A stretch of 23,316 nt of DNA from IMG/VR virus record IMGVR_UViG_3300044911_000036, positions 1 through 23,316 of that record, one strand, 5' to 3'. The first letter of the stretch is position 1, and each line of letters begins with the position of its first letter. This DNA is from a virus. The translations under genes and the position numbers were made by a program. The notes beneath the pieces are model-generated. The model ran no database searches. It was not told the DNA's origin and saw nothing but the letters and a program-made list of their open reading frames with translations. Positions 1,885 through 22,773 of this stretch are shown here, piece after piece.

Positions 1885-3477
1885 TTAAGCATCAATCGCC
1901 CCGAAGAGTTTCCACGTCCCCGAAGTTCCTGCCGTTGTGCAAATCCACCCAACTTTTCCACCCGCCGTTGGCGCACGGTCGTAAACGATAGACCCAGCAG
2001 TCCATGTTCTTGTTGTCGGTGCCGCTGCTCCAGTGTCAATGAAACGATAGCCATCAAACTCACGCCAGTTGATTTCATTGACTACGTTATTAGAAACACT
2101 TTCATTTGTTACTCTACGAATAACAATAGGGTCGTCAACAGTGCTGTATGATCCAGATGGAATGGCGAAGGAGTTGCCAGTTACAACAAAACTTTTCCCA
2201 GTTTGAGCAGTAACGTCATACAAAAGAACCCCAGTCGTTAAGCCAGCAGTAACAAAACGCATCACATTGTTTGAATAAACTTTCTGACGATTGTTTGCAC
2301 TTCTGATGTAAATGGGAACATTCGTGATTTCCTGAGCATAAAAGTTGTTCCCATCAAAGGTGATGTCGTAAGAGTTACCAGCAGATGCTGCAGTGTTTTC
2401 TGATGTAAAAAAGTTAGTCACTTTCCCAACACGAATTATGTTATTCGATATGACTACGTTTCCGAATGATAAGCCAACCAAAGCCCCGTTAAGAACTTCA
2501 GCACCGTTACCGTCTGTATCTGTAAAATTATCGACAACATTACCATCAATTACAAAGTGGGTCGGACTACCACTTGCTCCTTGCCCAGTATAGTCCCCAA
2601 ACTCAATGGCTTTGATTGCAAAATTAGAAGCATTATTATCGGTCATGTCTGTAATGTTATTGCCTACAATGGACCATGAACCTTTTACACCTTCTGCGGC
2701 AATTCCAAACACACTATTAGCAGAGCAAACATTATTGCTCACAACACCATTGGTTCCGCCGTGAAAGTCAATGCCTTTACGCCAGTTGTCATTGGCTTGG
2801 TTGTTGGAAACAATCGTGTCTATTGGATCGCAAGCATTCCATGTAGCAAAGCCGTAGCCAGTATTATTGCTTGTGCTAATACCGTTCAAACGAAGAATAC
2901 AGTTAGTGACAATACCTTGGTTTGTGTTGCCAAATGAAACCCCAGCCACACGGTTGCTGTATAGGTTACAATTTTGGATGCGTGGACGATTGCAGTATGT
3001 TCCTGCGGAAACAAAGTCATATTCAACATTGATACCGCAACGGTTAAAGCCATACGCCGTTACATTATCAGCCGTGAAGTCATCACTGCCACTCTGGACT
3101 TGGATGCCAGAAATGTATCCACCATAGTCTCCACTGACAGTAAATGTCCCAGTATACTCCAAACGGATGTCTTTGATTGTCACACGATCCGTATCGACAA
3201 CAATCATGCTTTCCAAAACGGATGGTGTTCCACTTTGTGCATAATTACCAGTCAAACGTGCATCGTTTCCGTAAACCGTTGTGCCATTTGTTGAAATGGT
3301 CAGACCACCAGAAACTTTGTAGACCTTGCCCTTGGTGAACTCAAAGCTAAGGTTAGCATTGATACAGGCTTGAATTGCAGCAGTATCGTCAGTCGTCCCG
3401 TCACCAACCGCGCCATAGTCATCGACATTGGCGACTTGGCTTGCAATCATTCTGTTGTGTGCTTTTGTCAGAGCCAT
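1885..3477 (-). CDS. Right-handed beta-helix tailspike (pectate-lyase-3-like), probable receptor-binding or depolymerase protein
   Basis: The 530-aa product starts with VDDYGAVGDGTTDDTAAIQA, the entry motif of phage pectate-lyase-type beta-helix proteins. It continues as many short Asn/Val/Gly-rich coils typical of a right-handed parallel beta-helix (NNVCSANSVFGIA, SNNIIRVG, YSNNVMRF, VSNNVVNEI). The last 40 residues (GSIVYDRAPTAGGKVGW, TTAGTSGTWKLFG) form a module often found at the C-terminus of phage spikes. By family it should trimerise at the virion tip and bind or cleave surface polysaccharide. No catalytic residues can be assigned by eye. It lacks its own head-binding domain, which lies in the gene at 4129-4968. 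Start: a GAGG element precedes the ATG. The core is much more AT-rich than the neighbours, a sign of separate origin. Confidence 0.85.
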   Translation of the reverse strand: MALTKAHNRMIASQVANVDDYGAVGDGTTDDTAAIQACINANLSFEFTKGKVYKVSGGLTISTNGTTVYGNDARLTGNYAQSGTPSVLESMIVVDTDRVTIKDIRLEYTGTFTVSGDYGGYISGIQVQSGSDDFTADNVTAYGFNRCGINVEYDFVSAGTYCNRPRIQNCNLYSNRVAGVSFGNTNQGIVTNCILRLNGISTSNNTGYGFATWNACDPIDTIVSNNQANDNWRKGIDFHGGTNGVVSNNVCSANSVFGIAAEGVKGSWSIVGNNITDMTDNNASNFAIKAIEFGDYTGQGASGSPTHFVIDGNVVDNFTDTDGNGAEVLNGALVGLSFGNVVISNNIIRVGKVTNFFTSENTAASAGNSYDITFDGNNFYAQEITNVPIYIRSANNRQKVYSNNVMRFVTAGLTTGVLLYDVTAQTGKSFVVTGNSFAIPSGSYSTVDDPIVIRRVTNESVSNNVVNEINWREFDGYRFIDTGAAAPTTRTWTAGSIVYDRAPTAGGKVGWICTTAGTSGTWKLFGAIDA

Positions 3478-3890
3478 GATTAACCTCAGCTTGTAAAGTA
3501 TGAGAAAGATACGGCCAGATCACCAACACCGCTAGAAATAGCACTTACTAGCAAGTTTGCTCTTCCTGTTGTAGTTACGTTTTCAAGGGCGATGTAGGTG
3601 CCAGCATTCGCCAATATCCAGCCTTGGATGCCAACAGTACTAGCGATGCTATCCGCCCTTACGTAGACTGGAAAGAAACGGTTCGTACCAGCAGATACTG
3701 TGGGAAATGGAAGACCTTGAATATAAGCAGCGTTAGCAGCAGTTAGGCCAGTTGTGTTAATGTTCAGCATTGAAATTGTACAGTGAACTACATTCCCAAC
3801 CTTAGTGTATTGAGCATATGTATTTGAAGTCGAGGCCAAGTTACCTCCAGAAATAGCATCAGCAAATACTGGGCTGAACGTCCCCTCTTC
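2040..3890. other. AT-rich island covering the spike core and the end of the fibre gene
   Basis: Hand counts of 60-base samples give GC 19/60 at 2401-2460, 22/60 at 2581-2640, 27/60 at 2641-2700 and 27/60 at 3541-3600. By contrast they are 37/60 at 3901-3960 and 42/60 at 5221-5280. The drop begins inside the gene at 3486-4118, close to its DDYEEGTFSP segment, and ends inside the last 50-odd codons of the beta-helix gene, whose C-terminal module is GC-rich again. Edges are approximate. The pattern suggests a laterally exchanged host-range cassette. Confidence 0.65.
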
Positions 3891-4118
3891 ATAGTCATCG
3901 AACAGTTCGCTTGTGCCTGTGCCGGGGGTGGCAGAAAAGTCGATGCCCTTTCCGTCGGCCAAAACGACGTTGCCGTCCTTGAGCGTGACGCCATCCAGCG
4001 TGATACCAGCGGCAGCGGTTTGCTCAACGATCTGGTCAACCGTCAGCACGCCGTCCACAGTGACATTGTTGAATGTCGGGTTGCGACCAAATATCCCGCC
4101 TTGCTGTCTGATAGTCAT
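3486..4118 (-). CDS. Tail-fibre-like structural protein with a variable C-terminal half
   Basis: The 210-aa protein has an N-terminal stretch of short beta repeats (NPTFNNVTVDGVLTVDQI, AAAGITLDGVTLKDGNVVL) like the shaft segments of phage fibre proteins. A DDYEEGTFSPVF segment follows, a motif I associate with phage fibre C-terminal domains. The remainder (TYAQYTKVGNVVHC, NRFFPVYVRADS) looks like a compact beta-sandwich tip. It lies between the head-binding adaptor gene and the beta-helix spike gene, separated by 10 and 8 bases, so all three are probably co-expressed parts of one receptor-binding apparatus. AAGGGGGCGACTATG gives a convincing start. The C-terminal half is AT-rich and the N-terminal half GC-rich, so the gene is likely mosaic. 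Confidence 0.7.
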   Translation of the reverse strand: MTIRQQGGIFGRNPTFNNVTVDGVLTVDQIVEQTAAAGITLDGVTLKDGNVVLADGKGIDFSATPGTGTSELFDDYEEGTFSPVFADAISGGNLASTSNTYAQYTKVGNVVHCTISMLNINTTGLTAANAAYIQGLPFPTVSAGTNRFFPVYVRADSIASTVGIQGWILANAGTYIALENVTTTGRANLLVSAISSGVGDLAVSFSYFTS

Positions 4119-5020: not shown

Positions 5021-6943
5021 TCATTGCGGGGCTGACTGCGGCGGCTCTTCAGCGGCCTTTTCGGCGCGCAGTGCCACCGTTAGTTGCTTGATGAGTTCCT
5101 GCTCCTGCGGGCTGCCTTTGGTGGTCTGCGGCAGCTTCAACAGGATGTTGCGGACAGGCGCGCTTTCATACAGACGGGCAATGCCGCCGATAGTGGCGCC
5201 CCCAACGATACCGGCACCAGCGCCGCCGAGAATGTCGGTCAAGACAGCCGCGCCGACGACGGGAACAGCCTGCACGCCAGTCGGTGGCGAGACGCCAGCG
5301 CGCCCAGCTTGCTCGGTCATCTTCAGCGCGCGGGTCAGCCCCTCAACGGCCTTCAGATCCTGCCCAGAGAAAAACACGCCGATAGGAGATCCAAGGCGGA
5401 TCAACTGACGCTTGAACTGATCGGGGCTTAGGTTCTCGAAGTTGCCGCCGACCTTGTTAAAGGCTTCCTGCAAAACAGCCGTGCGGGCGTTGCGCTTGCC
5501 TTCAGCGGACAGGCCGCGATAGAGCGCTTTGATGTCGCTGGGCTTGGCCGAGAACAGCATCGTGCGGATGACTTCGGGCGACGTGTCACCCTTTGCCAAT
5601 GCGGCCTTCATTGCGCCAAGTTCAAGTTCACCCGCCATGCTGGCAAGCTGCTTGTTGGCGATGTTCCACTTGTCGAAATCACGGCGCTGGCCGTTTGCCT
5701 TGATGTAGTCCGCCATGTCCTCGCGCAGCGGCGCATAGATGCGGCTGAGAACTTTCTCGCCTTCGCTACGAACGGCGGCCAGGCTTGGATCAGTGAACGC
5801 CTCGCCGATCTGCTTGCGCAAAACCTCGATGGTTGCCAGCGGCTGGCCCTGCACGACTGTCTGCGTCTGGCCGTTTGGAAGCGCGACCTCGCGGGTGCCG
5901 GTCAGGTCGTCACGCCAAGTCATCAACCGATCGACCACGGGCTTAAACTGTGTCGGGCTGATCTTGTTCAGGCGCGCGATTTCTTCGTCAATCTTCGCAA
6001 CAGATTTCGCCACTGGAACTGTGGTGTTTGGCTGAGACAGGCGCTCAATCACCTCGGTCTTCATGCCGGTGTATTTGGTCAGGTTCTCGCCGCGACGGGC
6101 CAGAAGATCCTTCGCCACGTTTGAGATTATGGTGTTGTCTGCGGCTGACGCTTCGGTGACGCCATAGTTGCGCAGAAGCTCAACAGATGCGTCAATGCGC
6201 TCTTGCTGCTGTGCAGCACGCGGGCCGCCCGTGCCTGCCATCGGGATCATCTCGCCAGTGCGTTGCAGCCAGCGGCCTGCAAACGTCGTCGGCTGGCGCA
6301 CGTCGGTAGTCATCACACGAACACCGGCATCTTCTGCCTCACGCACGGCAGCAGGCAATGCAGCCGATGGTGCTTCCGCACTGATGCCAGCGGCACGCCC
6401 GCCAGCGACACCGCCAGCCAGACCAGCCGCAAGCTGCGCGCCTGGGCCGCCGCCCGCCTCTGCAACAACCTGCGCTGCCCCGCCGCCAGTGCCGCCAGCG
6501 GCAGCCTGCGCGCCGGGCTGGGCCGCAAGCTGTCCAGCCACGCGCTGCGCTCCAGTGGTCAATACGCGCTCTGCACCGCGTGCCATAGCTGCCTGACCGC
6601 CAGCACCAACGGCACCCTCGCTGATGGCGCCAATCACGCGCTCGGTGGCCGTCTCTGGCTCAGGTACGCCAAGGTCGGTCAGCGCACGCTTGACCTGCTC
6701 TCGCAGCGGCTGCGTCTCGGTTCCGAACAGATAGTTCTGCACCGCAGCAATTGGGTCATAGGCGAGGCCAGCAACACCAGCCAAACCTTGCGCGCCGTAA
6801 CGAGCCGTCAGCCCGAGTTGGCGCTCCAGATCGGCGGTCTTGCTCGGCTCAGACATAACCTCAACGGGGATGCCTTGGCCTTCAGCCTTCATGGCAGCAG
6901 CCACTGCGGCGATGGCTTTCAGGTCAATCGCTTCATCCGCCAT
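5021..6943 (-). CDS. Large Ala/Gly-rich ejection (internal virion) protein, P22 gp16 position
   Basis: This 640-aa protein is helix-rich, with an Ala/Gly-rich amphipathic region at about residues 95-200 (GAISEGAVGAGGQAAMARGA) that could insert in or line a membrane channel. Its C-terminal part is charged and helical, with another small hydrophobic stretch (VPVVGAAVLTDILGGAGAG). It is the third of three consecutive genes at the place of P22 genes 7, 20 and 16, whose products are packed in the capsid and ejected to form a periplasm-spanning conduit. Assignment rests on position, size and composition rather than a sequence match. The start overlaps the upstream gene by 11 bases, with AGAGGG upstream. 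It could also carry an enzymatic domain that I cannot recognise. Confidence 0.7.
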   Translation of the reverse strand: MADEAIDLKAIAAVAAAMKAEGQGIPVEVMSEPSKTADLERQLGLTARYGAQGLAGVAGLAYDPIAAVQNYLFGTETQPLREQVKRALTDLGVPEPETATERVIGAISEGAVGAGGQAAMARGAERVLTTGAQRVAGQLAAQPGAQAAAGGTGGGAAQVVAEAGGGPGAQLAAGLAGGVAGGRAAGISAEAPSAALPAAVREAEDAGVRVMTTDVRQPTTFAGRWLQRTGEMIPMAGTGGPRAAQQQERIDASVELLRNYGVTEASAADNTIISNVAKDLLARRGENLTKYTGMKTEVIERLSQPNTTVPVAKSVAKIDEEIARLNKISPTQFKPVVDRLMTWRDDLTGTREVALPNGQTQTVVQGQPLATIEVLRKQIGEAFTDPSLAAVRSEGEKVLSRIYAPLREDMADYIKANGQRRDFDKWNIANKQLASMAGELELGAMKAALAKGDTSPEVIRTMLFSAKPSDIKALYRGLSAEGKRNARTAVLQEAFNKVGGNFENLSPDQFKRQLIRLGSPIGVFFSGQDLKAVEGLTRALKMTEQAGRAGVSPPTGVQAVPVVGAAVLTDILGGAGAGIVGGATIGGIARLYESAPVRNILLKLPQTTKGSPQEQELIKQLTVALRAEKAAEEPPQSAPQ

Positions 6944-8237
6944 AACGCGCCCTCTGCTCTGGGGTCATCACATTCCACATGTCTTCTGGCGTAACGCCTG
7001 CCGCCGTTGCTGCGTTGGTCACGTTTTGGTTCGTTATGAATGACTGCGGGATGGCAGTAGTTGCTCCCGGTGCCGGAGTGGTCGCTGCACGCGCACCGAA
7101 CACGTTGACCGGGTCAAGGCCGTAGTTATCAACGATCTGCTGATAACTTGCCTGCACCTGAACCTCTTGCGCCTTGGCCGCATCAAGATATCGCCCTGCA
7201 AGCCGCTGGAAATCAGCTCTTTGTTGAGGCGTAAGGAACTCCCCTTTTTCAATTTTGTTGGGAAGTGCAGATAGCGTTGCGAGCAGACCGCCAGCATTTG
7301 CAGCAGTTGCAAATTCGGTTTCACGCACCACTGATCCAGGGTCCAGCATTTTCATGAACGACGTAACAAGCGCGATGTCGCCAGCGCCGCTTTGATCTGC
7401 CGCCGAAGTCTGGATAACAGAGAAATTACGTTCCGCAGCGGAAAGATCCTCGGTTCGCTTGCCATACTCGCCACGCAGGCGGGCTTCTTCCGCCACCTTT
7501 TGCTGAAGCGTCAAGCCTTCCTCAGATGCTTTTTCGTCAACGCGGATCGCCGCGTCAAGAACGCTCTTCGGGATCAAGCCAGCCTCAACGTCTTGTGCGA
7601 TCTTGCCGAGAGGAGATGCGCCTTCTGCCGTAACATTGCCCTGCCCGGTCTGCTTGATGATCGCGTCCATGACGCCGGCATCAATTGCCCCAGAAGCCGT
7701 CAGAAGCGCCAGCGTGGCCACACCTTGGCCCTGCGGGTCGATCTCCACCAGCTTGCGGTTGGCACGCAGGGCAGCGGCTTCCTGCGCGTCTCCTGCGTTC
7801 TCTGCGGCTGCGATGCGCTCGTCCAGCATGGCCAAGGCCACCTCGGGCTTGCCGCCCAGAAGGCTGGTCGAAAGCTGGATGCCGAATTGCGTGTCAGCCT
7901 CACGGCGCGGGGCTTCCATCGCCTCAAACGCACTCTGGAACTCGCCAAAGGTCGAGGCATTGTTCAGCGCAAACTGGTTCAGCGCATCGGTCGTCAGCGT
8001 GCCACTGATCGCCATGTCACGCAGGCTAGAAAGCTGCGCTTGCATGGCCTCAGCCTGCGCACGCTGGCGCTCTGCCTCGGCACGGCGCATTTCAAACTCA
8101 GAGGCAGCGCGGGCCTCTGCGGCGGCACGCATGTCCATAACTTGGCGCTGCTCGATGTCGGCGCGCCCAAGACCATAACCGCGCATCGCCTCTTCAATGG
8201 GGTTTTTCACGTCAAGCATGTAGTTGATGGGTTCCAT
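6933..8237 (-). CDS. Ejection (DNA-injection) protein, P22 gp20 position
   Basis: The 434-aa product begins with a long charged helix (residues about 35-75, AEARAASEFEMRRAEAERQR) likely to form a coiled coil. A helical body follows. It includes SFMKMLDPGSVVRETEFATA (about residues 290-310), a segment I have seen in internal virion or injection proteins of several podoviruses. Tyr- and Gln-rich helices follow (AKAQEVQVQASYQQI) and the C-terminus ends in MTPEQRARYGG. Its start shares bases with the stop of the preceding ejection gene (TGATG), and its own end overlaps the next, indicating coupled synthesis of the three ejection proteins. The role inferred from P22 is passage of DNA across the cell envelope. 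Confidence 0.75.
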   Translation of the reverse strand: MEPINYMLDVKNPIEEAMRGYGLGRADIEQRQVMDMRAAAEARAASEFEMRRAEAERQRAQAEAMQAQLSSLRDMAISGTLTTDALNQFALNNASTFGEFQSAFEAMEAPRREADTQFGIQLSTSLLGGKPEVALAMLDERIAAAENAGDAQEAAALRANRKLVEIDPQGQGVATLALLTASGAIDAGVMDAIIKQTGQGNVTAEGASPLGKIAQDVEAGLIPKSVLDAAIRVDEKASEEGLTLQQKVAEEARLRGEYGKRTEDLSAAERNFSVIQTSAADQSGAGDIALVTSFMKMLDPGSVVRETEFATAANAGGLLATLSALPNKIEKGEFLTPQQRADFQRLAGRYLDAAKAQEVQVQASYQQIVDNYGLDPVNVFGARAATTPAPGATTAIPQSFITNQNVTNAATAAGVTPEDMWNVMTPEQRARYGG

Positions 8238-8929
8238 CAGAACGCCCCTCCGCCGTAGAACATGCCCTGCCCGAATGTCAGCGGTGCGCTGGCACCTTGC
8301 GGCGTATAGCCTTGATACGCCATGCCGCGACCGATGGCCATGCCAGCGCTGCCGATCAGGTTGCCAAAGGCTTGCCCTTGCGCCAACGCACTGCCGGCAC
8401 GCGCGGCGCCCTGCTGCTGCATGAGGCTAGAGATATTCTGGCCAGTCTGCATGCCAGCAGTGCCGACGCCAGCCGCTGCGTTCTGACCAGCCGATGCAAG
8501 GCCGCCAAGGCGGCTGTATTGCTGCTCGATCAGGCCAGACAGGATCTGCGGGCGAAACTGGGCCAGCGCGCCCTGCACGTTGCCACCACGCAGGCCGCCG
8601 GTGGCAGCGGCGTTCTGCAAGATCGCGGTCTCACCCTGCTGCGCCAGCGCGGCAAACTCCGGACCTTGCTCAATCGCTTGCAGGGCCGCACGTTGGGCAT
8701 CCGCACCAGCCGCACCTGTCAGCGCCATCTGCTGGCCAAAAGCCGTCGTGCCACCCGTGACAAACGGCGCAAGAAGTTCGCGCACCGCGTCAAATTGGCG
8801 GCGCTGTTCCTCAATGCCAGCCTGCGCTGACGCGGTTTGTGCGGCTGCGCCCCTGCGTGCTGCGCTGGACTGCACACCGGCGCTCAGAAGAGAGCTGCCA
8901 AGCAGGGCAAGACCTGTGCTAATGGCCAT
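8237..8929 (-). CDS. Small Ala/Gln/Gly-rich ejection protein, P22 gp7 position
   Basis: The 230-aa protein starts with a hydrophobic segment (MAISTGLALLGSSLLSAGVQ). A helical region rich in Ala, Gln and Gly follows (LRGGNVQGALAQF, QQQGAARAGSALAQGQ), with a glycine-rich tail (TFGQGMFYGGGAF). This composition and its place as the first of three ejection-type genes match P22 gp7 and related small injection proteins. The ATG at 8929 is preferred over a longer in-frame start at 9019, because AAGGA lies nine bases upstream and the longer form would lie within the GNAT gene. It overlaps the end of that gene by 11 bases. Confidence 0.7.
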   Translation of the reverse strand: MAISTGLALLGSSLLSAGVQSSAARRGAAAQTASAQAGIEEQRRQFDAVRELLAPFVTGGTTAFGQQMALTGAAGADAQRAALQAIEQGPEFAALAQQGETAILQNAAATGGLRGGNVQGALAQFRPQILSGLIEQQYSRLGGLASAGQNAAAGVGTAGMQTGQNISSLMQQQGAARAGSALAQGQAFGNLIGSAGMAIGRGMAYQGYTPQGASAPLTFGQGMFYGGGAF

Positions 8930-9479
8930 GACGGATTTCCTTCGTGAATGTGCGCTCAATCGGCATAAATCCGCTGCGGGAATAAACGCGCTCCATCGTC
9001 CCCGCTCGCTCGTTTTCAAGCGCGATCATAAACAACTGGCTTGCGCCGATCTGCTCGGCCCAGCCCTCGATTGCAAACATCATCTGCTTGCCGGCGCTAG
9101 ATCCGCGTTCTGCCGGATCGACCCACCAAAACAATTCCTGCGCGACGGTCACGCTGGGCGCGAAATAAAGCGGGAAGGCCATTGCGCCCGCAATGCCAAC
9201 CACGTCGCCGCCCTTTTCAGCCACCCAAACCTGCGCTGCGTCTGAAGCGTCAACGTGATCCAGAAACGCGCCAAAGCCCGCTTCATCGAAATCAACGCGC
9301 CGGCCCATCGGAGACGCGGCGAAAAACGCCCGCGCCTGCTCAATCACGCCTGCCTTGTCTGATTTTTCAGCTTGGCGAACCAGCACCGGGCAACCCTCTT
9401 TGGATCTTGCCTGCTGGTGGGCCAAAGTCTCAGCGTCCGCATTATCGCAGAAATCGGTTTTTCGGGCAAGGCTCGTCAT
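8919..9479 (-). CDS. GNAT-family N-acetyltransferase
   Basis: After a non-conserved 30-residue leader, the 186-aa protein shows a GNAT layout. It begins with VLVRQAEKSDKAGVIEQA, then AAQVWVAEKGGDVVGIAGAM (the beta-hairpin before motif A). Next comes LFWWVDPAERGSSAGKQMM, which holds an R/G-x-x-A/G-type acetyl-CoA pyrophosphate loop. A C-terminal SGFMPIERTFTKEI strand ends the domain. It would transfer acetyl groups from acetyl-CoA to an amine on an unknown substrate. It lies between the lytic transglycosylase and the ejection genes with ATGA and 11-base overlaps, so it is part of the late operon. That suggests a role in virion assembly or as a co-packaged enzyme. A later internal start is possible because the leader is not part of the fold. 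Confidence 0.85.
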   Translation of the reverse strand: MTSLARKTDFCDNADAETLAHQQARSKEGCPVLVRQAEKSDKAGVIEQARAFFAASPMGRRVDFDEAGFGAFLDHVDASDAAQVWVAEKGGDVVGIAGAMAFPLYFAPSVTVAQELFWWVDPAERGSSAGKQMMFAIEGWAEQIGASQLFMIALENERAGTMERVYSRSGFMPIERTFTKEIRHGH

Positions 9480-17581: not shown

Positions 17582-19651
17582 TTACATTGTGCGGCTGGGC
17601 GGTTGCCGCATTCCGGTGGCGACGGTCTCTTGCAGAGCCTTCGCCGTTTCTACGACGTTGGTGCGCTCTTTCTGCTGAATGCCAGCAAGCACCTCAACGG
17701 TCTTGGCGCGGGTCTCTTCCGCACGCGCCAAGGTGTATTCTGTATTGGCCTGAGCCTGGCCCGCTTTGGCCTGCGCTTCCATCGCGGCGGCCTGAAGATA
17801 AAGCGCCTGCGGATCGGGCTGCTGCGCGGCCTGCATTTCGGCCAACAGCTTCTCGCCTTCCTGCTCGGTCGGCTGGATGACGCCCATCTTGATCAGCTTG
17901 TCGCGGAAGTAGGCACGCACCTCGCCGATGCCCTCGCCGTCCATGTTCATCATGGCCATCGATGTCAGCACCTGCTGCGTCTCAGGATCTGGCGCGATCT
18001 GGATCATGCCCAACAGCGCGCGAACCGTGGCGCTGCGCTTGGTGGCCGAGGCCGGGCCGACATCGACAGCCACGTCAAACTTGGCATTGGACAGGTCGTT
18101 TTCGTATTCGACTTCGCCGGTCTTGGGGTTGAGCATCGGCTTGCCGATCTCAATGCTGGACAACTCACCGCCGAGGCCCACAGACTTCATCTTGCGGCCA
18201 GGCTCGACCACGATGTCACGCGCCATCGACAGCCAGACCTCACCGCAACGCTTCACGGCCTTGGACATGTTCGACATGTAGATAAAGGTCTGCATGTCCA
18301 GACGCTGCTGGATCAGTTCCACGGCCTTGCCGCTGATGTTGGAGACGACCTCCTCGGCAGCGTCGGGCTTGCCCAGCAGATCGCTCATGTCCTGCTCAGT
18401 AATCTGCAACAGGCCAGCGAGCGCAGGCGGGATCTGCGGCGGCTTGGTGTAGCCGACCGGGCCGGCAAGCGTCTCACCGCCGTTGGCATCGGTCACGGTG
18501 TTCAGGAGCAGGTAGGGATAGTTTTTGAGGTTGTCCTCGGACCACATCATTTCGTGGCCGGCGACCTGCTCGGGCGTAAAGATCGGCTTCTCAACGGTCG
18601 AAAGCGCGCTGATCTCGCCCAGCTTGGAAAGCTGCATGTTCTTCAGCCGCTGGGCATCCTTGGCCAAACGCACATGACCCATGCACCGCTCGACGTTGTC
18701 CACGAACCAACGCTTGCCGTAGACCGGAATGATCGGGATCTGGTCGCCGGCAATGTAGCCGCTGTCCTCCAGCACCTTGCTGCCGCTCATGATGTACTTG
18801 CGCACCTTGCGGCGCTTCACGCGGCGCTGGCGGACCTCTTTGGTGCCGACAGCCTCAAGCATCGTTTCCAGTTCAGGATCTTGCTCGAAGTCTTTTTCAG
18901 AATACTTTTCTTCCTGCCCGTCGAGGGTCTGGAAAATGCGGATCAGTTCCGACGCCTCTTCGACGCGGTAGACCTCGGCAACGTAGACGACATCAGGTGT
19001 CGCCCAGTCAAATCCCACCTGCTGGATGCCCTTCGGCCAGGTGGTCGGGTCATCTTCCCAGACTTCGCGGTAGGCATCTGGCGTCATCGCCGTCAGCACA
19101 TAGCACATGCGCGCGTCAGACTTGTCCTGGCGCTTGGCATCCAGATCGAAGAACACGGTGGTGTCAGCGTCATAGATCGGCTCAATGCGGATGCGCTGCT
19201 TTTCGTTCTCTTCGTCGTACTCGTCTTCGTAGACAGCACGCAGGCGGAATGCACCGAAGCCACCGCCGACAGCCTCCTCGAAAGCGTTGTCGTAGGCTTC
19301 ATTGGCGCCGCTGTCCTGCTCGTCAGAACGGAACAGGCCATCGCACACGTCGGCCATCTTGTCGTCGTCGGTGCCGTCCTTGCTCACGAAGTCAACCGTG
19401 ATGCGGTTGTTGCGGTATTCGTTGATGATCCGCATGACGGACAGGTGAACCTTGTTCACCTCAAACTTGGGCTTGTTTAGATATTGCTCATAGAGGTTGC
19501 CCTCCCACTGCGCGCCCGAGATCGAGTAAAAGCGGCGATCCTCCAAGCACTGCAAACGCTCATCGCGCATGGTGCTTTGGATGGTGTCAAACTCTGACAT
19601 CGCTTCGGCATGAACATTTGCAAGCCGCTGGTCTCTGGTCATGCGGGCCAA
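17582..19651 (-). CDS. Portal protein, P22 gp1-like
   Basis: The 689-aa protein is near the size of P22 portal (725 aa). Recognisable segments are DERLQCLEDRRFYSISGAQW, VNKVHLSVMRIINEYRNNRI, GGFGAFRLRAVYEDEYDEEN, IPVYGKRWFVDNVERCMGHV and SGKAVELIQQRLDMQTFIYM. The C-terminal 80 residues are a helical Ala/Gln/Glu-rich region (QAAAMEAQAKAGQAQANTEY) like the barrel of P22 portal. Twelve copies form the ring through which DNA is packaged and ejected. The start is unsettled: a TTG at 19651 has AAAGG eight bases upstream, while the ATG nine bases downstream (19642) is farther from it. I list the TTG. The gene follows the large terminase after 61 bases. Confidence 0.93.
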   Translation of the reverse strand: MARMTRDQRLANVHAEAMSEFDTIQSTMRDERLQCLEDRRFYSISGAQWEGNLYEQYLNKPKFEVNKVHLSVMRIINEYRNNRITVDFVSKDGTDDDKMADVCDGLFRSDEQDSGANEAYDNAFEEAVGGGFGAFRLRAVYEDEYDEENEKQRIRIEPIYDADTTVFFDLDAKRQDKSDARMCYVLTAMTPDAYREVWEDDPTTWPKGIQQVGFDWATPDVVYVAEVYRVEEASELIRIFQTLDGQEEKYSEKDFEQDPELETMLEAVGTKEVRQRRVKRRKVRKYIMSGSKVLEDSGYIAGDQIPIIPVYGKRWFVDNVERCMGHVRLAKDAQRLKNMQLSKLGEISALSTVEKPIFTPEQVAGHEMMWSEDNLKNYPYLLLNTVTDANGGETLAGPVGYTKPPQIPPALAGLLQITEQDMSDLLGKPDAAEEVVSNISGKAVELIQQRLDMQTFIYMSNMSKAVKRCGEVWLSMARDIVVEPGRKMKSVGLGGELSSIEIGKPMLNPKTGEVEYENDLSNAKFDVAVDVGPASATKRSATVRALLGMIQIAPDPETQQVLTSMAMMNMDGEGIGEVRAYFRDKLIKMGVIQPTEQEGEKLLAEMQAAQQPDPQALYLQAAAMEAQAKAGQAQANTEYTLARAEETRAKTVEVLAGIQQKERTNVVETAKALQETVATGMRQPPSRTM

Positions 19652-19712: not shown

Positions 19713-20939
19713 TCACCGTGCCATCGGCATGCTGACGGGGACAAGGCGGGCCTTCGGCTTGTCCTGCTTGGCCACGCGACGGGCGCCCTCGCAGGCATAG
19801 CGCAGCGCGTCGATGACGTGGTTTTCCTTGTCCTCCAGCACAGGCAAGATGCTGCCCGTGTCCCGGTCGGTCTTGTAGCTGTAGAGCGTCAGTTCATCAA
19901 TGGTGTGCTTGCAGCGGGGATGCACCACGATGTCAAAAGACTTCAGCCATTCGACGCCCTCCTCGACCGACTTCGGCCCCTTGACCGCCGGCATGATCTT
20001 CGGAAAGCCGTTCTTGCGCATGTGGCTGATTGTCTCGGGCCGCGCGCTGTCGGCCACCATCGGCCAGCGTTCAGCCTCGGGGATCGTCATAAACAGCGAA
20101 GGCGTGTCAACGATCTCGCAGCCCACCTGATAGGCTTCGTGATCGATATACAGCTTGCGCCCGATGATGTGGCAGCGAATGCCGACGGTCGGGTCAGTGG
20201 CAAAGCCCCAGTCAGCGCCGAGGCGATGGACGGCATCAGGCGGTGCCTCAAAGTCCTCAATGGTCCAGTTCTTGAACACGCGGGTTTCGCTGTTGCGGAC
20301 ATACTCGCCCTTCCAGACGTGCAGGTATTTGTCTGGATCTCTCCGCTTGTCGTATTCCATTTCGTCCTTGAGAACGTCAGGGAACCACGGGTTGTCGCTA
20401 TAGTTCACCTCGACGATCACGCTGTCAGGCGGCGGCGTTGGCCCACGCAGCAGGCCCTCAATGGGGTCCGTGTCGAAACGTGGGTTCCAACTGAACAGCA
20501 GTTGCGATCCTGGCTTGCGGATGGTCGGGCGCAGGAGATCCAGCGAGAACTGGCTGATCGACTGGGCTTCTTCCACCCAAGCGATGTCAAAGCCCTCCAG
20601 CGACTTCACGCTGTCGGCTGTGTGGTTCTGCATGCCTTGGAAGATGATCACGCCGCCGTGCGGGCATTTGATCTCTGCCTGCTGCACCTGAAACAGATGA
20701 CCGACGCCCAATTCCTCGATCTTGTTTTCGATCAGCTTCTTGACCGACTGCTTCAGCGACTTCTGCACCTCGCGCACGCAGACCACGTCGGTCTTGCGCA
20801 TCACGCAACGCTCCACGATCCATTCCGCAAAGAAGGTTGACTTGCCAGAGCCGCGCCCGCCGAACGCCCCGATGTAGCGGGCGCTCTCGCGTTGCAGGAT
20901 TGGCAGCGCCCAGCGAGGCGTGTTGATGGTGAGGTTCAT
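19713..20939 (-). CDS. Terminase large subunit (PBSX/Terminase_3 type)
   Basis: The 408-aa ATPase-nuclease shows the P-loop GGRGSGKST (about residues 27-35), a Walker B with catalytic Glu in IAWVEEAQS (about 119-127), and a coupling motif FSWNPR (about 150-155). The C-terminal RNase H-like nuclease acidic residues lie in GADWGF (about 244), MVADSARPE (about 298) and HVIDALRYAC (about 378). It docks on the portal, pumps DNA into the procapsid and cuts the concatemer. Unlike P22, whose small terminase gene lies directly upstream, the small terminase here is separated by the 477-aa gene. GGA lies just before the ATG; no strong ribosome site is seen. Confidence 0.95.
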   Translation of the reverse strand: MNLTINTPRWALPILQRESARYIGAFGGRGSGKSTFFAEWIVERCVMRKTDVVCVREVQKSLKQSVKKLIENKIEELGVGHLFQVQQAEIKCPHGGVIIFQGMQNHTADSVKSLEGFDIAWVEEAQSISQFSLDLLRPTIRKPGSQLLFSWNPRFDTDPIEGLLRGPTPPPDSVIVEVNYSDNPWFPDVLKDEMEYDKRRDPDKYLHVWKGEYVRNSETRVFKNWTIEDFEAPPDAVHRLGADWGFATDPTVGIRCHIIGRKLYIDHEAYQVGCEIVDTPSLFMTIPEAERWPMVADSARPETISHMRKNGFPKIMPAVKGPKSVEEGVEWLKSFDIVVHPRCKHTIDELTLYSYKTDRDTGSILPVLEDKENHVIDALRYACEGARRVAKQDKPKARLVPVSMPMAR

Positions 20940-20952
20940 TGGGGTCCGACTA

Positions 20953-22386
20953 CTAACGAGCGCCTGATGTCGGCGCGACAGGGAAATATCCGAACTCGTT
21001 CACGTCGTTGCCATCAAAGTAAATGTCTTTGACCTTCACTTTCTGGGAAATAATCTTCCCAGGCTCATCCCCGCTTCTGCCATATCCAGAAGCCCCATGA
21101 AGTTTGGCATATGTCGGGCTAAGGGTGATAAAATCCCCCTCGTTGATCGTCGTGATGTTGGGATCATTAGGCACGGCGCGATAGATTGTGACCTCTGCAT
21201 CAGGCTTGCCTCTTACAGCCATGATTGCCCTGTAGCTCTCTTTGTTTGCCTGACCAAACTCATCGCCAGAAAACTGAGGACCAGGAGCATAGAAGCGCGG
21301 ACCATTTGCGGAGTAGAAATCTGCGGGATACCCGGCCTGCTCACCAGTGGTGGACCTGGTTAGGTCATCGAGGCGAATTGGCAATTCGTCTTGAGGACCA
21401 CGGGGCTGTTGCTGCATTCGATACGACGTATCGACTGGAGCAGAAATGTTAAAATTCTCCGGGGCGTTCATCGCTCTTTCCACGTCTTCAAATGTCAGGT
21501 TTGGCGCAATCCTCTCCTGCATTCTTGGAGAAACCATGTTGACGGATGACATCTCATCGATGTCTGCAAATACTTCTTCAAGGGTAGCGCCTGGCTTGCC
21601 CGGCGGCCTGCGCCCAAGGCGATATGCTGTCGTTGCCGCTGCTTTGGATGACACCTGACCGCCCATCACCGGGAAGTCCTGCATAACGCGCTCTTGCAGC
21701 GTCTGGCCTATGCCTTGGCCGCGAGATGCTTCTGGCACCTCCAACTCAAGGACCGATGCGCTGCCATCTGGTCGCACGACAACCTCAATGGTGCCGCCGC
21801 TTCGCGGATCGGTGTAACGTACACGCTCGGAACCGGCTCCGAAGATGTTCGATGCGTCACGGCGTGATACATCAAGACCTCCACCCCTGCCAACGCCTGG
21901 GATCGGGTTGCTGTACATTACCGGCACGGGACCGGGCTGGTTGAGGCGGTCAACGATATCGCGACCAGCCGCACGCATAGTGTCTCCAGCAGCCTGCGTC
22001 GTGGGTGAGAACCCCAGCAGCCCCTCCATCATTGCGCTGGCAGCAGGCACACCGATGGCCCTTGCGGCTGCGATAGGTGCGGCGATGCCGGCCACGCCTG
22101 ACGCCATCTCTCCCAAGGATGCGATGCGGTCCCAATAGCTCTGATCGGGCGCCATCATGCGAGATCCTGCCCGCATTGCGCCGCCGATGCCCTCGACCGG
22201 GTTGAAGGTCTGGTTCAGAAAGGCAAGCCTCTCACCGATGCCGCCGACGTTCAGCAGGCTAGGATCTTGCGGCGGCACGCCACGGGCCTCGGTATCGGGC
22301 CGCACGCGGCGCACGGGATACAGCATGCCGTCTGCGCGCCGCTCATATAGCACGTTTCCGATTTCGCGCAGGTCTTCGATAGCCAT
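20953..22386 (-). CDS. Multidomain protein with GNAT-like and ADP-ribosyltransferase-like regions, between the terminase genes
   Basis: The 477-aa protein has four parts: a polar N-terminus; an Ala-rich hydrophobic region at about residues 90-125 (GVAGIAAPIAAARAIGVPAA), like ejection proteins; a GNAT-like section with LELEVPEASRGQGIGQTLQE (about 213-232, acetyl-CoA loop RGQGIG); and, after a linker, a C-terminal domain. That domain contains VTIYRAVP (Arg403), GDFITLSPTYAKLHG (about 418-431) and YFDGNDVNEFGYFP (Glu464). This order resembles the R-S/T-E arrangement of ADP-ribosyltransferase folds in phage polyvalent proteins. Such enzymes modify host proteins with NAD. It could be packed in the head and injected, but that is inference. 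The coding region for the C-terminal domain is lower in GC (25/60 at 21001-21060 against 35/60 at 22201-22260). AAGGG precedes the ATG by eight bases. Confidence 0.7.
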   Translation of the reverse strand: MAIEDLREIGNVLYERRADGMLYPVRRVRPDTEARGVPPQDPSLLNVGGIGERLAFLNQTFNPVEGIGGAMRAGSRMMAPDQSYWDRIASLGEMASGVAGIAAPIAAARAIGVPAASAMMEGLLGFSPTTQAAGDTMRAAGRDIVDRLNQPGPVPVMYSNPIPGVGRGGGLDVSRRDASNIFGAGSERVRYTDPRSGGTIEVVVRPDGSASVLELEVPEASRGQGIGQTLQERVMQDFPVMGGQVSSKAAATTAYRLGRRPPGKPGATLEEVFADIDEMSSVNMVSPRMQERIAPNLTFEDVERAMNAPENFNISAPVDTSYRMQQQPRGPQDELPIRLDDLTRSTTGEQAGYPADFYSANGPRFYAPGPQFSGDEFGQANKESYRAIMAVRGKPDAEVTIYRAVPNDPNITTINEGDFITLSPTYAKLHGASGYGRSGDEPGKIISQKVKVKDIYFDGNDVNEFGYFPVAPTSGAR

Positions 22387-22389
22387 GCC

Positions 22390-22773
22390 TTAGCCCTTCG
22401 GATCGATGATGGTTCGCTTGATTTCGACGGGAATAGCGCCGCCGTCTGGGCCGGATAGCTCTTGCTTGGTCGCGTCAGAGTAGCCGTGCTTGGACAGCAT
22501 CATCTTGGTGATCGGCGGATTGAACGTGCCGTCGAGGCCATTATTGAGCAATTCGCGCTCTTGCTTTTGCGCGATTGCCTTGAGGATGTCAGAAAAAACC
22601 TTGTCCTTGTCCCGCGCCCAATCGTAGCAAGTCTCACGGTGCATGCCGATTTCGCAAGCCAGACCGGCAACTGACGGCACCTTGTCGCCCGCCTTGATCC
22701 AGCCGCCGTTGGCGTATTCCCACGCCTTCTCAACGATCTCTGGCGAATAGTCTGTCAGCCTTCCAGACGGCAT
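22390..22773 (-). CDS. Terminase small subunit, P22 gp3-like
   Basis: The 127-aa protein has an N-terminal helical DNA-binding region (SPEIVEKAWEYANGGWIKAG, then VPSVAGLACEIGMHRETCYDW), which looks like a helix-turn-helix at about residues 30-52. It continues with a helical body (LKAIAQKQERELLNNGLDG) and a C-terminus with ITKMMLSKHGYSD and VEIKRTIIDPKG, typical of small terminases of this type. Such proteins form rings that recognise the packaging site and stimulate the large subunit. I chose ATG 22773 (GAGGTGAGCAATATG) over a longer in-frame start at 23046, whose extra 91 codons are an out-of-frame reading of the upstream gene. The stop is three bases before the next start. Confidence 0.88.
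   Translation of the reverse strand: MPSGRLTDYSPEIVEKAWEYANGGWIKAGDKVPSVAGLACEIGMHRETCYDWARDKDKVFSDILKAIAQKQERELLNNGLDGTFNPPITKMMLSKHGYSDATKQELSGPDGGAIPVEIKRTIIDPKG

What the first reader, a model, noticed from the sequence alone, without database searches (positions are those of the whole stretch)
20953..21500. Lower-GC 3' half of the inter-terminase gene suggests a domain added by transfer
Counted samples are 25/60 GC at 21001-21060 and 28/60 at 21421-21480, against 35/60 at 22201-22260 in the same gene and higher values in the terminase genes. The change coincides with the ART-like C-terminal region, which suggests a cassette joined to an older N-terminal virion protein.
Basis: partly seen in the sequence, partly recalled or inferred. 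Interest (0 to 1): 0.5.

Follow-up and report, generated by a model that had tools for sequence, protein, structure and literature searches.

The report
Swappable effector cassette between phage terminases
In this uncultured phage, the low-GC end of a gene lying between its two DNA-packaging genes is a replaceable cassette, one of many alternative enzyme-like modules that close relatives carry at the same spot, probably delivered into the bacterium at infection.

Summary
The GC step is real: the three sample counts are exact, and 0 of 5,000 permutations match the change point. Comparison settles the rest. The gene is a mosaic: leader, N-core, GNAT acetyltransferase, ART-like domain. Ten complete genes with terminases at least 97% identical show ten module orders; 34 complete genes show 26; some close relatives have no gene there. 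The cassette domain has relatives at up to 194 viral stretches, matches no Pfam family, and keeps an Arg-Ser-Glu triad in 39 of 39 aligned members; its similarity to ADP-ribosyltransferases is consistent but weak (best Z 4.7). Family members often sit beside terminase, portal or internal virion protein genes. Most likely it is a virion-carried polyvalent effector. Corrections: GC alone is weak evidence, since the step occurs in 32 of 34 such genes; it starts about 28 codons before the junction; the N-terminal part is itself a mosaic. Packaging, injection and activity are inferred.

The parts
20953..22386 (-). Inter-terminase gene, 477 aa, modular
   Evidence: ORF; mosaic homology
22264..22386 (-). 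Leader, aa 1-41, exchanged among relatives
   Evidence: Shared at 98-100% by L010, L012, L014 and L020, replaced by other leaders in L004, L018, L021
21982..22263 (-). N-core, aa 42-135, Ala/Gly-rich with a moderately hydrophobic stretch
   Evidence: Alignment A1; hydropathy maximum 1.56 at aa 98; fused behind a phage tail lysozyme domain in L009 and L030; poorly predicted structure
21877..21981 (-). Hinge aa 136-170; homology to several relatives ends in it
   Evidence: Blastn edges at aa 135 and 164-173
21502..21876 (-). GNAT acetyltransferase-like module, aa 171-295
   Evidence: Fold search; weak Pfam match; 82% identical homologue in L166 passes the Pfam cut-off
20953..21501 (-). Exchanged low-GC cassette, aa 296-477 and stop
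   Evidence: No blastn match outside contigs of the same phage; GC 0.516
21469..21501 (-). Seam peptide NLTFEDVERAM, aa 296-306
   Evidence: Motif found at module joints of other proteins
20956..21450 (-). ART-like domain, aa 313-477; R403, S423, E464 invariant in the alignment
   Evidence: A5; AlphaFold2 pLDDT 90.2; VIA
22390..22773 (-). Small terminase subunit (GP3_package), itself exchanged among relatives
   Evidence: Pfam E 7.7e-22; identity about 30-100%
19713..20939 (-). Large terminase subunit
   Evidence: Pfam Terminase_3 E 3.7e-35
17582..19651 (-). P22-type portal
   Evidence: Pfam E 1.5e-158

Best explanation
The terS-terL junction of this P22-like phage group is a site for an accessory gene. 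The gene there is a modular effector of the polyvalent-protein kind: an N-terminal part followed by enzyme-like modules that are gained, lost and swapped between phages. In this phage a GNAT acetyltransferase-like module is followed by an exchanged, lower-GC cassette holding a compact Arg-Ser-Glu ART-like domain. Shown: the mosaic, the cassette borders, the empty site in close relatives, a GNAT-like fold, the invariant triad. Inferred: the protein is made late, carried in the head with the ejection proteins, enters the cell with the DNA, and there acetylates and ADP-ribosylates host proteins to aid takeover or disarm defence. Variation in hosts and their defences would explain why the modules are swapped so often.
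For: Homology ends at aa 295 and returns at the gene's end against relatives 88-95% alike in DNA on both sides (L004-L007). Ten complete genes with TerL at least 97% identical have ten module orders, 34 have 26. Empty sites occur in L044 and L046 (TerL 98-99%). GNAT-like fold. ART-like domain: triad in 39 of 39, confident model; of the 20 VIA rows shown, 18 are of the ART superfamily by my recall of those families. Virion context in relatives: 7 of 10 neighbours tested hit terminase, portal, internal virion or virion structural families; N-core fused behind a tail lysozyme domain; LPD23 and LPD38, polyvalent-associated domains, in L062 and L202.
Against: No proteomic or biochemical data. Three of ten neighbours tested had no PHROG hit. 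Solo homologues of the domain also sit beside replication genes (Vibrio phage VH7D) or among small genes near a recA-like gene (BigBubba), so some members need not be virion proteins. Foldseek finds no significant PDB match for the ART-like model, and 0 of 39 members match a Pfam ART profile.
Confidence: 0.68

Rival explanations
1. The modular protein acts inside the cell late in lytic growth (on packaging, superinfection or host shut-off) and is not carried in the virion.
For: Solo homologues of the domain lie outside virion clusters in some phages. Ref. PMC9503650 itself offers a role against defences that target the packaging apparatus (passage seen). No virion data exist.
Against: Neighbour genes in several unrelated phages are terminase, portal or internal virion genes, and the N-core is fused to a tail lysozyme domain.
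Confidence: 0.22
2. The cassette domain is not an ADP-ribosyltransferase but another fold or a catalytically dead binding domain; PHROG labels its family 'ParB C-terminal domain'.
For: PHROG_2579 label; Foldseek none significant; VIA Z at most 4.7; no Pfam ART hit in 39 members; no profile similarity to the ART-PolyVal-like modules.
Against: Arg, Ser and Glu are invariant in strand order in 39 of 39, and ART-fold structures dominate the VIA list.
Confidence: 0.25
3. The GC step is ordinary variation along an unbroken gene, with no transfer.
For: The step recurs in 32 of 34 genes, and low GC is partly a property of the domain.
Against: All nucleotide homology to close relatives is lost at aa 295.
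Confidence: 0.02

Closest known systems
Phage polyvalent proteins (Iyer et al. 2017, PMC5512222; passages and sections 9 and 34 read)
   Same: Several enzyme domains in one protein, GNAT beside ART, genes among portal-terminase virion genes, repeated domain accretion
   Different: Smaller gene at a fixed terS-terL site, swapped between phages with near-identical terminases; the ART-like domain is of Arg-Ser-Glu type, whereas that paper describes His-Tyr-Asp ARTs in polyvalent proteins
MuF polymorphic toxins (Jamet et al. 2017, PMC5576092; passages read)
   Same: Constant N-terminal part with variable C-terminal effector domains, in phage head gene clusters
   Different: No MuF domain found; TerL follows directly with no immunity-sized ORF between; the N-terminal part also varies
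T4 Alt (described in section 9 of PMC5512222)
   Same: Arg-Ser-Glu type active site; a phage protein thought to enter with the DNA
   Different: No Alt/VIP2 profile match; fused to a GNAT module; injection not shown here
PHROG_2579, labelled 'ParB C-terminal domain'
   Same: Homologous over aa 313-469, E 1.4e-25
   Different: Only the C-terminal part (332-462 of 472) of that family is matched; the label gives no enzyme
ART-PolyVal (PF18760)
   Same: Sub-threshold matches occur in other C-terminal modules of relatives (L006, L024, L025, L034, L035)
   Different: The window's domain does not match it, by hmmscan or by hhalign to those modules

Membership tests
Phage polyvalent proteins | Two or more distinct catalytic-type domains in one polypeptide | tested here: met
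   GNAT-like plus ART-like; the second is weaker
Phage polyvalent proteins | Encoded among portal-terminase virion genes | tested here: met
   Between TerS and TerL
Phage polyvalent proteins | Polyvalent-associated (LPD-type) domains | tested here: inconclusive
   None in the window protein; LPD23 in L062 at the same site and LPD38 in the ART-bearing L202
Phage polyvalent proteins | His-Tyr-Asp type ART, as described for this class in PMC5512222 section 9 | tested here: not met
   Arg-Ser-Glu invariant in 39 of 39; this argues against that ART clade, not against a multidomain effector
Phage polyvalent proteins | Packaged in the virion and injected | not testable with these tools
   Context only
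ADP-ribosyltransferase superfamily | ART fold | tested here: inconclusive
   Foldseek none significant; VIA best Z 4.7 to KptA, 18 of 20 rows shown ART-type by recall, the other two CNFy
ADP-ribosyltransferase superfamily | Catalytic triad in strand order (Arg, Ser, Glu; motif type from PMC5512222 and recall) | tested here: met
   R403, S423, E464 invariant, in or next to strands of the model
ADP-ribosyltransferase superfamily | Match to a Pfam ART profile | tested here: not met
   0 of 39 members at E 1
GNAT acetyltransferases | GNAT fold | tested here: met
   Best Foldseek E 1.5e-3; best VIA Z 7.9, nearly all 50 rows acetyltransferase-type
GNAT acetyltransferases | R-G-x-G-I-G acetyl-CoA loop (motif recalled) | tested here: met
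   RGQGIG in the protein sequence
GNAT acetyltransferases | Pfam profile above cut-off | tested here: inconclusive
   Window below cut-off (16.6 against 30); L166 homologue above it (35.4)
MuF polymorphic toxins | MuF domain at the N-terminus | tested here: not met
   No such Pfam match up to E 1
MuF polymorphic toxins | Constant N-terminus with variable C-terminal domains | tested here: met
   the N-terminus varies too
MuF polymorphic toxins | Small immunity ORF directly downstream | tested here: not met
   TerL starts 13 bases after the stop codon

The most novel reading that the evidence does not exclude
A polymorphic virion-effector locus: phages with near-identical terminases exchange ejected effector modules at one site, much as polymorphic toxins exchange C-termini. 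Modules are joined through short peptide seams (RPPxTFxDxERAM, PRNEAEAMA) kept as protein more than as DNA, which may be processing, docking or unfolding sites for ejection. The cassette here belongs to an Arg-Ser-Glu ART-like family that Pfam lacks and that is spread through packaging and ejection clusters of many phages.
Probability: 0.4. Interest if true: 0.78.

Novelty: new variant of a known kind. Interest (0 to 1): 0.6.

Why it matters
It turns a composition hint into a natural experiment. Phages with near-identical packaging genes carry different effector modules, or none, at one address, so deleting or exchanging this gene in a laboratory phage could show what polyvalent virion effectors do and which host defences they answer. 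It also points to a widespread ART-like family without a Pfam model; a published survey counts ARTs in only 3% of podoviruses and siphoviruses (PMC9503650, section 13), which may miss families that have no profile.

Tried and rejected
GC as evidence on its own: rejected as weak. The step recurs in 32 of 34 genes, and other genes of the window deviate more.

The seam as a DNA recombination anchor: in 222 pairs with unlike flanks, identical codons at same-residue sites were 0.41 against 0.33 expected from codon usage. The peptide is conserved and the DNA only somewhat above expectation, so I lean to a protein role; not decisive.

Same ART clade as the ART-PolyVal-like modules: hhalign probability 0.3; the second alignment is poor, so this is a weak negative. 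Sequence search of solved structures with the ART alignment: two chance-level matches. Foldseek against the PDB with the ART-like model: nothing at E 0.001 or better. PADLOC: 0 of 10 proteins. N-core against 12 other window proteins: E 4 or worse. The first genome-contig scan found no relative of the gene. Modules in 46 prophage or genome loci around TerL relatives: only modL021 in L262 and a weak match in L225. The full-length alignment A4 misplaced the ART fragments and was not used. The model of aa 1-295 is poor outside GNAT (pLDDT 52), so the N-core has no usable fold.

Rows dropped: of 41 ART rows unique at 95%, A5 holds 38 plus the window (L176, L210 and L213 left out). Two of 77 ART ORFs were dropped because too little other sequence remained. 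L034 has no TerL on its contig; without it 33 genes still give 26 orders, since L035 has the same order. Module orders count only modules that I modelled.

Literature: the searches listed no paper that I recognised as describing this locus; the library holds open-licence papers only.

Full report
What is there. The window is a whole IMG/VR virus record. On the minus strand TerS (22390-22773), a 477-aa ORF (20953-22386), TerL (19713-20939) and a P22-type portal follow each other. Codon-usage-corrected GC of aa 296-477 is low (z -6.0), but several other genes also deviate: the gene at 1885-3477 has z -19, the gene at 3486-4118 z -9, the gene at 6933-8237 z -3.9, and TerL +4.1.

The comparison that decides it. 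A scan of viral contigs with the ORF gave 42 loci. In contigs whose TerL and portal are 97-100% identical to the window's, the ORF matches only in parts. Blastn of 3.9 kb around the gene shows homology edges near the gene start or aa 52, at aa 135, 164-173, 171 and 287-295, and a return at the gene's last bases or at TerL. In the loci held at that call, nothing outside contigs of the same phage matches aa 296-442. For example, L010 shares aa 1-164 at 96% and then has a different 467-aa end; L004 and L006 share GNAT at 98-99% and then differ; L015 and L016 carry other modules between N-core and GNAT. L001, L002 and L003, from other metagenomes, carry the same junction.

View of the site from TerL. 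A TerL-anchored scan (the best 80 kept of at least 598) gives 43 loci with TerL at 81% identity or more. Two are uninformative (L068, L090). Of the other 41, read by eye, 29 hold a gene between TerS and TerL, 11 have TerS overlapping TerL by four bases, and L076 seems to hold a broken remnant. Several loci are near-duplicates, so these are not independent counts. L044 and L046 (TerL 99% and 98%) are clean empty sites: the last codons of TerS run straight into the TerL start. Among 34 complete genes that I picked from the scans, including the window and four found through the seam motif, the modules I modelled occur in 26 orders; 33 lie between a TerS-like gene and TerL, and L034 lies directly before the portal with no TerL found. 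Ten of them have TerL at least 97% identical to the window's (the window itself, L004, L006, L010, L014, L018, L020, L021, L025, L040), and these ten have ten different orders. TerS is exchanged too (about 30-100% identity) while its last 20 or so codons are often kept.

Modules. GNAT, aa 171-295: Foldseek's top rows are acetyltransferases (best E 1.5e-3), and VIA's 50 rows are nearly all of that type (best Z 7.9). The 82% identical module of L166, where GNAT is likewise followed by the ART-like domain, passes the Pfam cut-off. Gordonia phage Skog gp173 also aligns across both regions, at 23% identity. Other C-terminal modules at the site include an LPD23 module above cut-off (L062), ART-PolyVal-like modules all below the Pfam cut-off (L006, L024, L025, L034, L035) and several unassigned ones. 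A gene with the same N-core and a PBECR5 module above cut-off lies just after TerL in L019. Some modules recur inside very long phage protein families. My script labels ARTb, ARTd and ARTf have no profile support.

The cassette domain. Its nearest relatives are 74-75% identical, in other phages; 194 stretches were confirmed, 80 kept, three of them the same phage. I parsed the other 77 ORFs: the domain sits at many positions in proteins of 129 (cut at a contig end) to 2,669 aa with differing neighbours. No member of a 39-row alignment matches a Pfam ART family; PHROG_2579 matches with E 1.4e-25 under the label 'ParB C-terminal domain'. R403, S423 and E464 are invariant in all 39. The AlphaFold2 model is confident (pLDDT 90.2, pTM 0.85). 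Foldseek has no significant PDB hit. VIA, a second look at Foldseek's own list, shows 20 rows, 18 of them ART-superfamily structures by my recall (KptA, Arr, TreX, TreTu, PARP16, PARP14, Vis, Tse6, ART2.2) and two CNFy, but at Z 4.7 or less. Among viral models, 15 match at E 0.001 or better, one named as carrying a large polyvalent protein associated domain. I therefore call the domain ART-like, not ART.

Composition again. The domain core is GC-poorer than the rest of its own ORF in 70 of 77 relatives. Over aa 313-477 the family mean is -0.022, the window's value -0.093, and 1 of 75 relatives is as low. So part of the dip belongs to the domain and part to this gene's GC-rich N-core; the remainder fits transfer from a lower-GC phage. 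No donor was identified.

How it probably works. Genes with these modules lie in packaging or head clusters of unrelated phages: after TerL and before a portal (L152), after TerL (L201), after a portal (L183, L209), before an internal virion protein (L166) or a virion structural protein (L161) by profile, and after TerL in L009, L030, L019 and L031 by my reading of the ORFs. Seven of ten neighbours tested had such hits; three had none. The N-core is fused behind a tail lysozyme domain in L009 and L030. Published work places GNAT beside ART in phage polyvalent proteins and argues for head packaging (PMC5512222, passages and sections 9 and 34; PMC9503650, passages and section 13). From this I infer an effector carried in the virion, injected, and modifying host proteins. 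Against it stand solo homologues beside replication genes and the lack of any experiment.

Seams. The peptide [PNAG][LVI]TFx[DE][VA]xRxM occurs 31 times in 29 of 54 proteins, at joints between different N-terminal parts and different modules. Nine of the 54 were fetched by the motif itself, and L051, L070 and L074 proved to be genes upstream of TerS. Its DNA is only somewhat more alike than codon usage predicts.

Verdict. The cassette reading is borne out by comparison rather than by GC. The picture is richer than a two-part fusion: a highly polymorphic variant of the known polyvalent-protein kind.

Noticed in passing
window 1885-4118 (-): Two genes downstream of the virion cluster have much lower GC (0.44 and 0.49) than the rest of the phage (codon-usage z -19 and -9); by position probably tail or host-recognition genes.
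   Followed up: no
window 8919-9479 (-): A free-standing GNAT acetyltransferase gene (Pfam E 7.5e-10) sits among the late genes, next to a transglycosylase gene.
   Followed up: no
window 22390-22773 and L010, L018, L021: TerS is exchanged as well: 37-39% identical in phages whose TerL is 97-99% identical, with the last 20 or so codons kept.
   Followed up: partly
L030 4819-9378: A 1,519-aa protein holds the N-core twice, with different modules after each copy, behind a tail lysozyme domain.
   Followed up: partly
L147-L223: Other recurrent peptide seams, such as ELRRQANI-RFGYDPNE and PRNEAEAMA, flank the ART-like domain in many relatives.
   Followed up: no
L076 1210-1778: A short, apparently broken gene at the site: an N-terminal piece and a C-terminal tail piece in separate ORFs.
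   Followed up: no
L051 1575-2861, L070 1-942: In two phages without the gene, an ORF that reads like a ParB/DNA methylase fusion lies just upstream of TerS (my reading, no profile search).
   Followed up: no
L262 3163-4866: The unassigned C-terminal module of L021 has a relative near a terminase in a Pirellulaceae genome bin.
   Followed up: no
L034 1955-3523: The gene lies directly before the portal and no TerL is found on this 5.8-kb contig.
   Followed up: no
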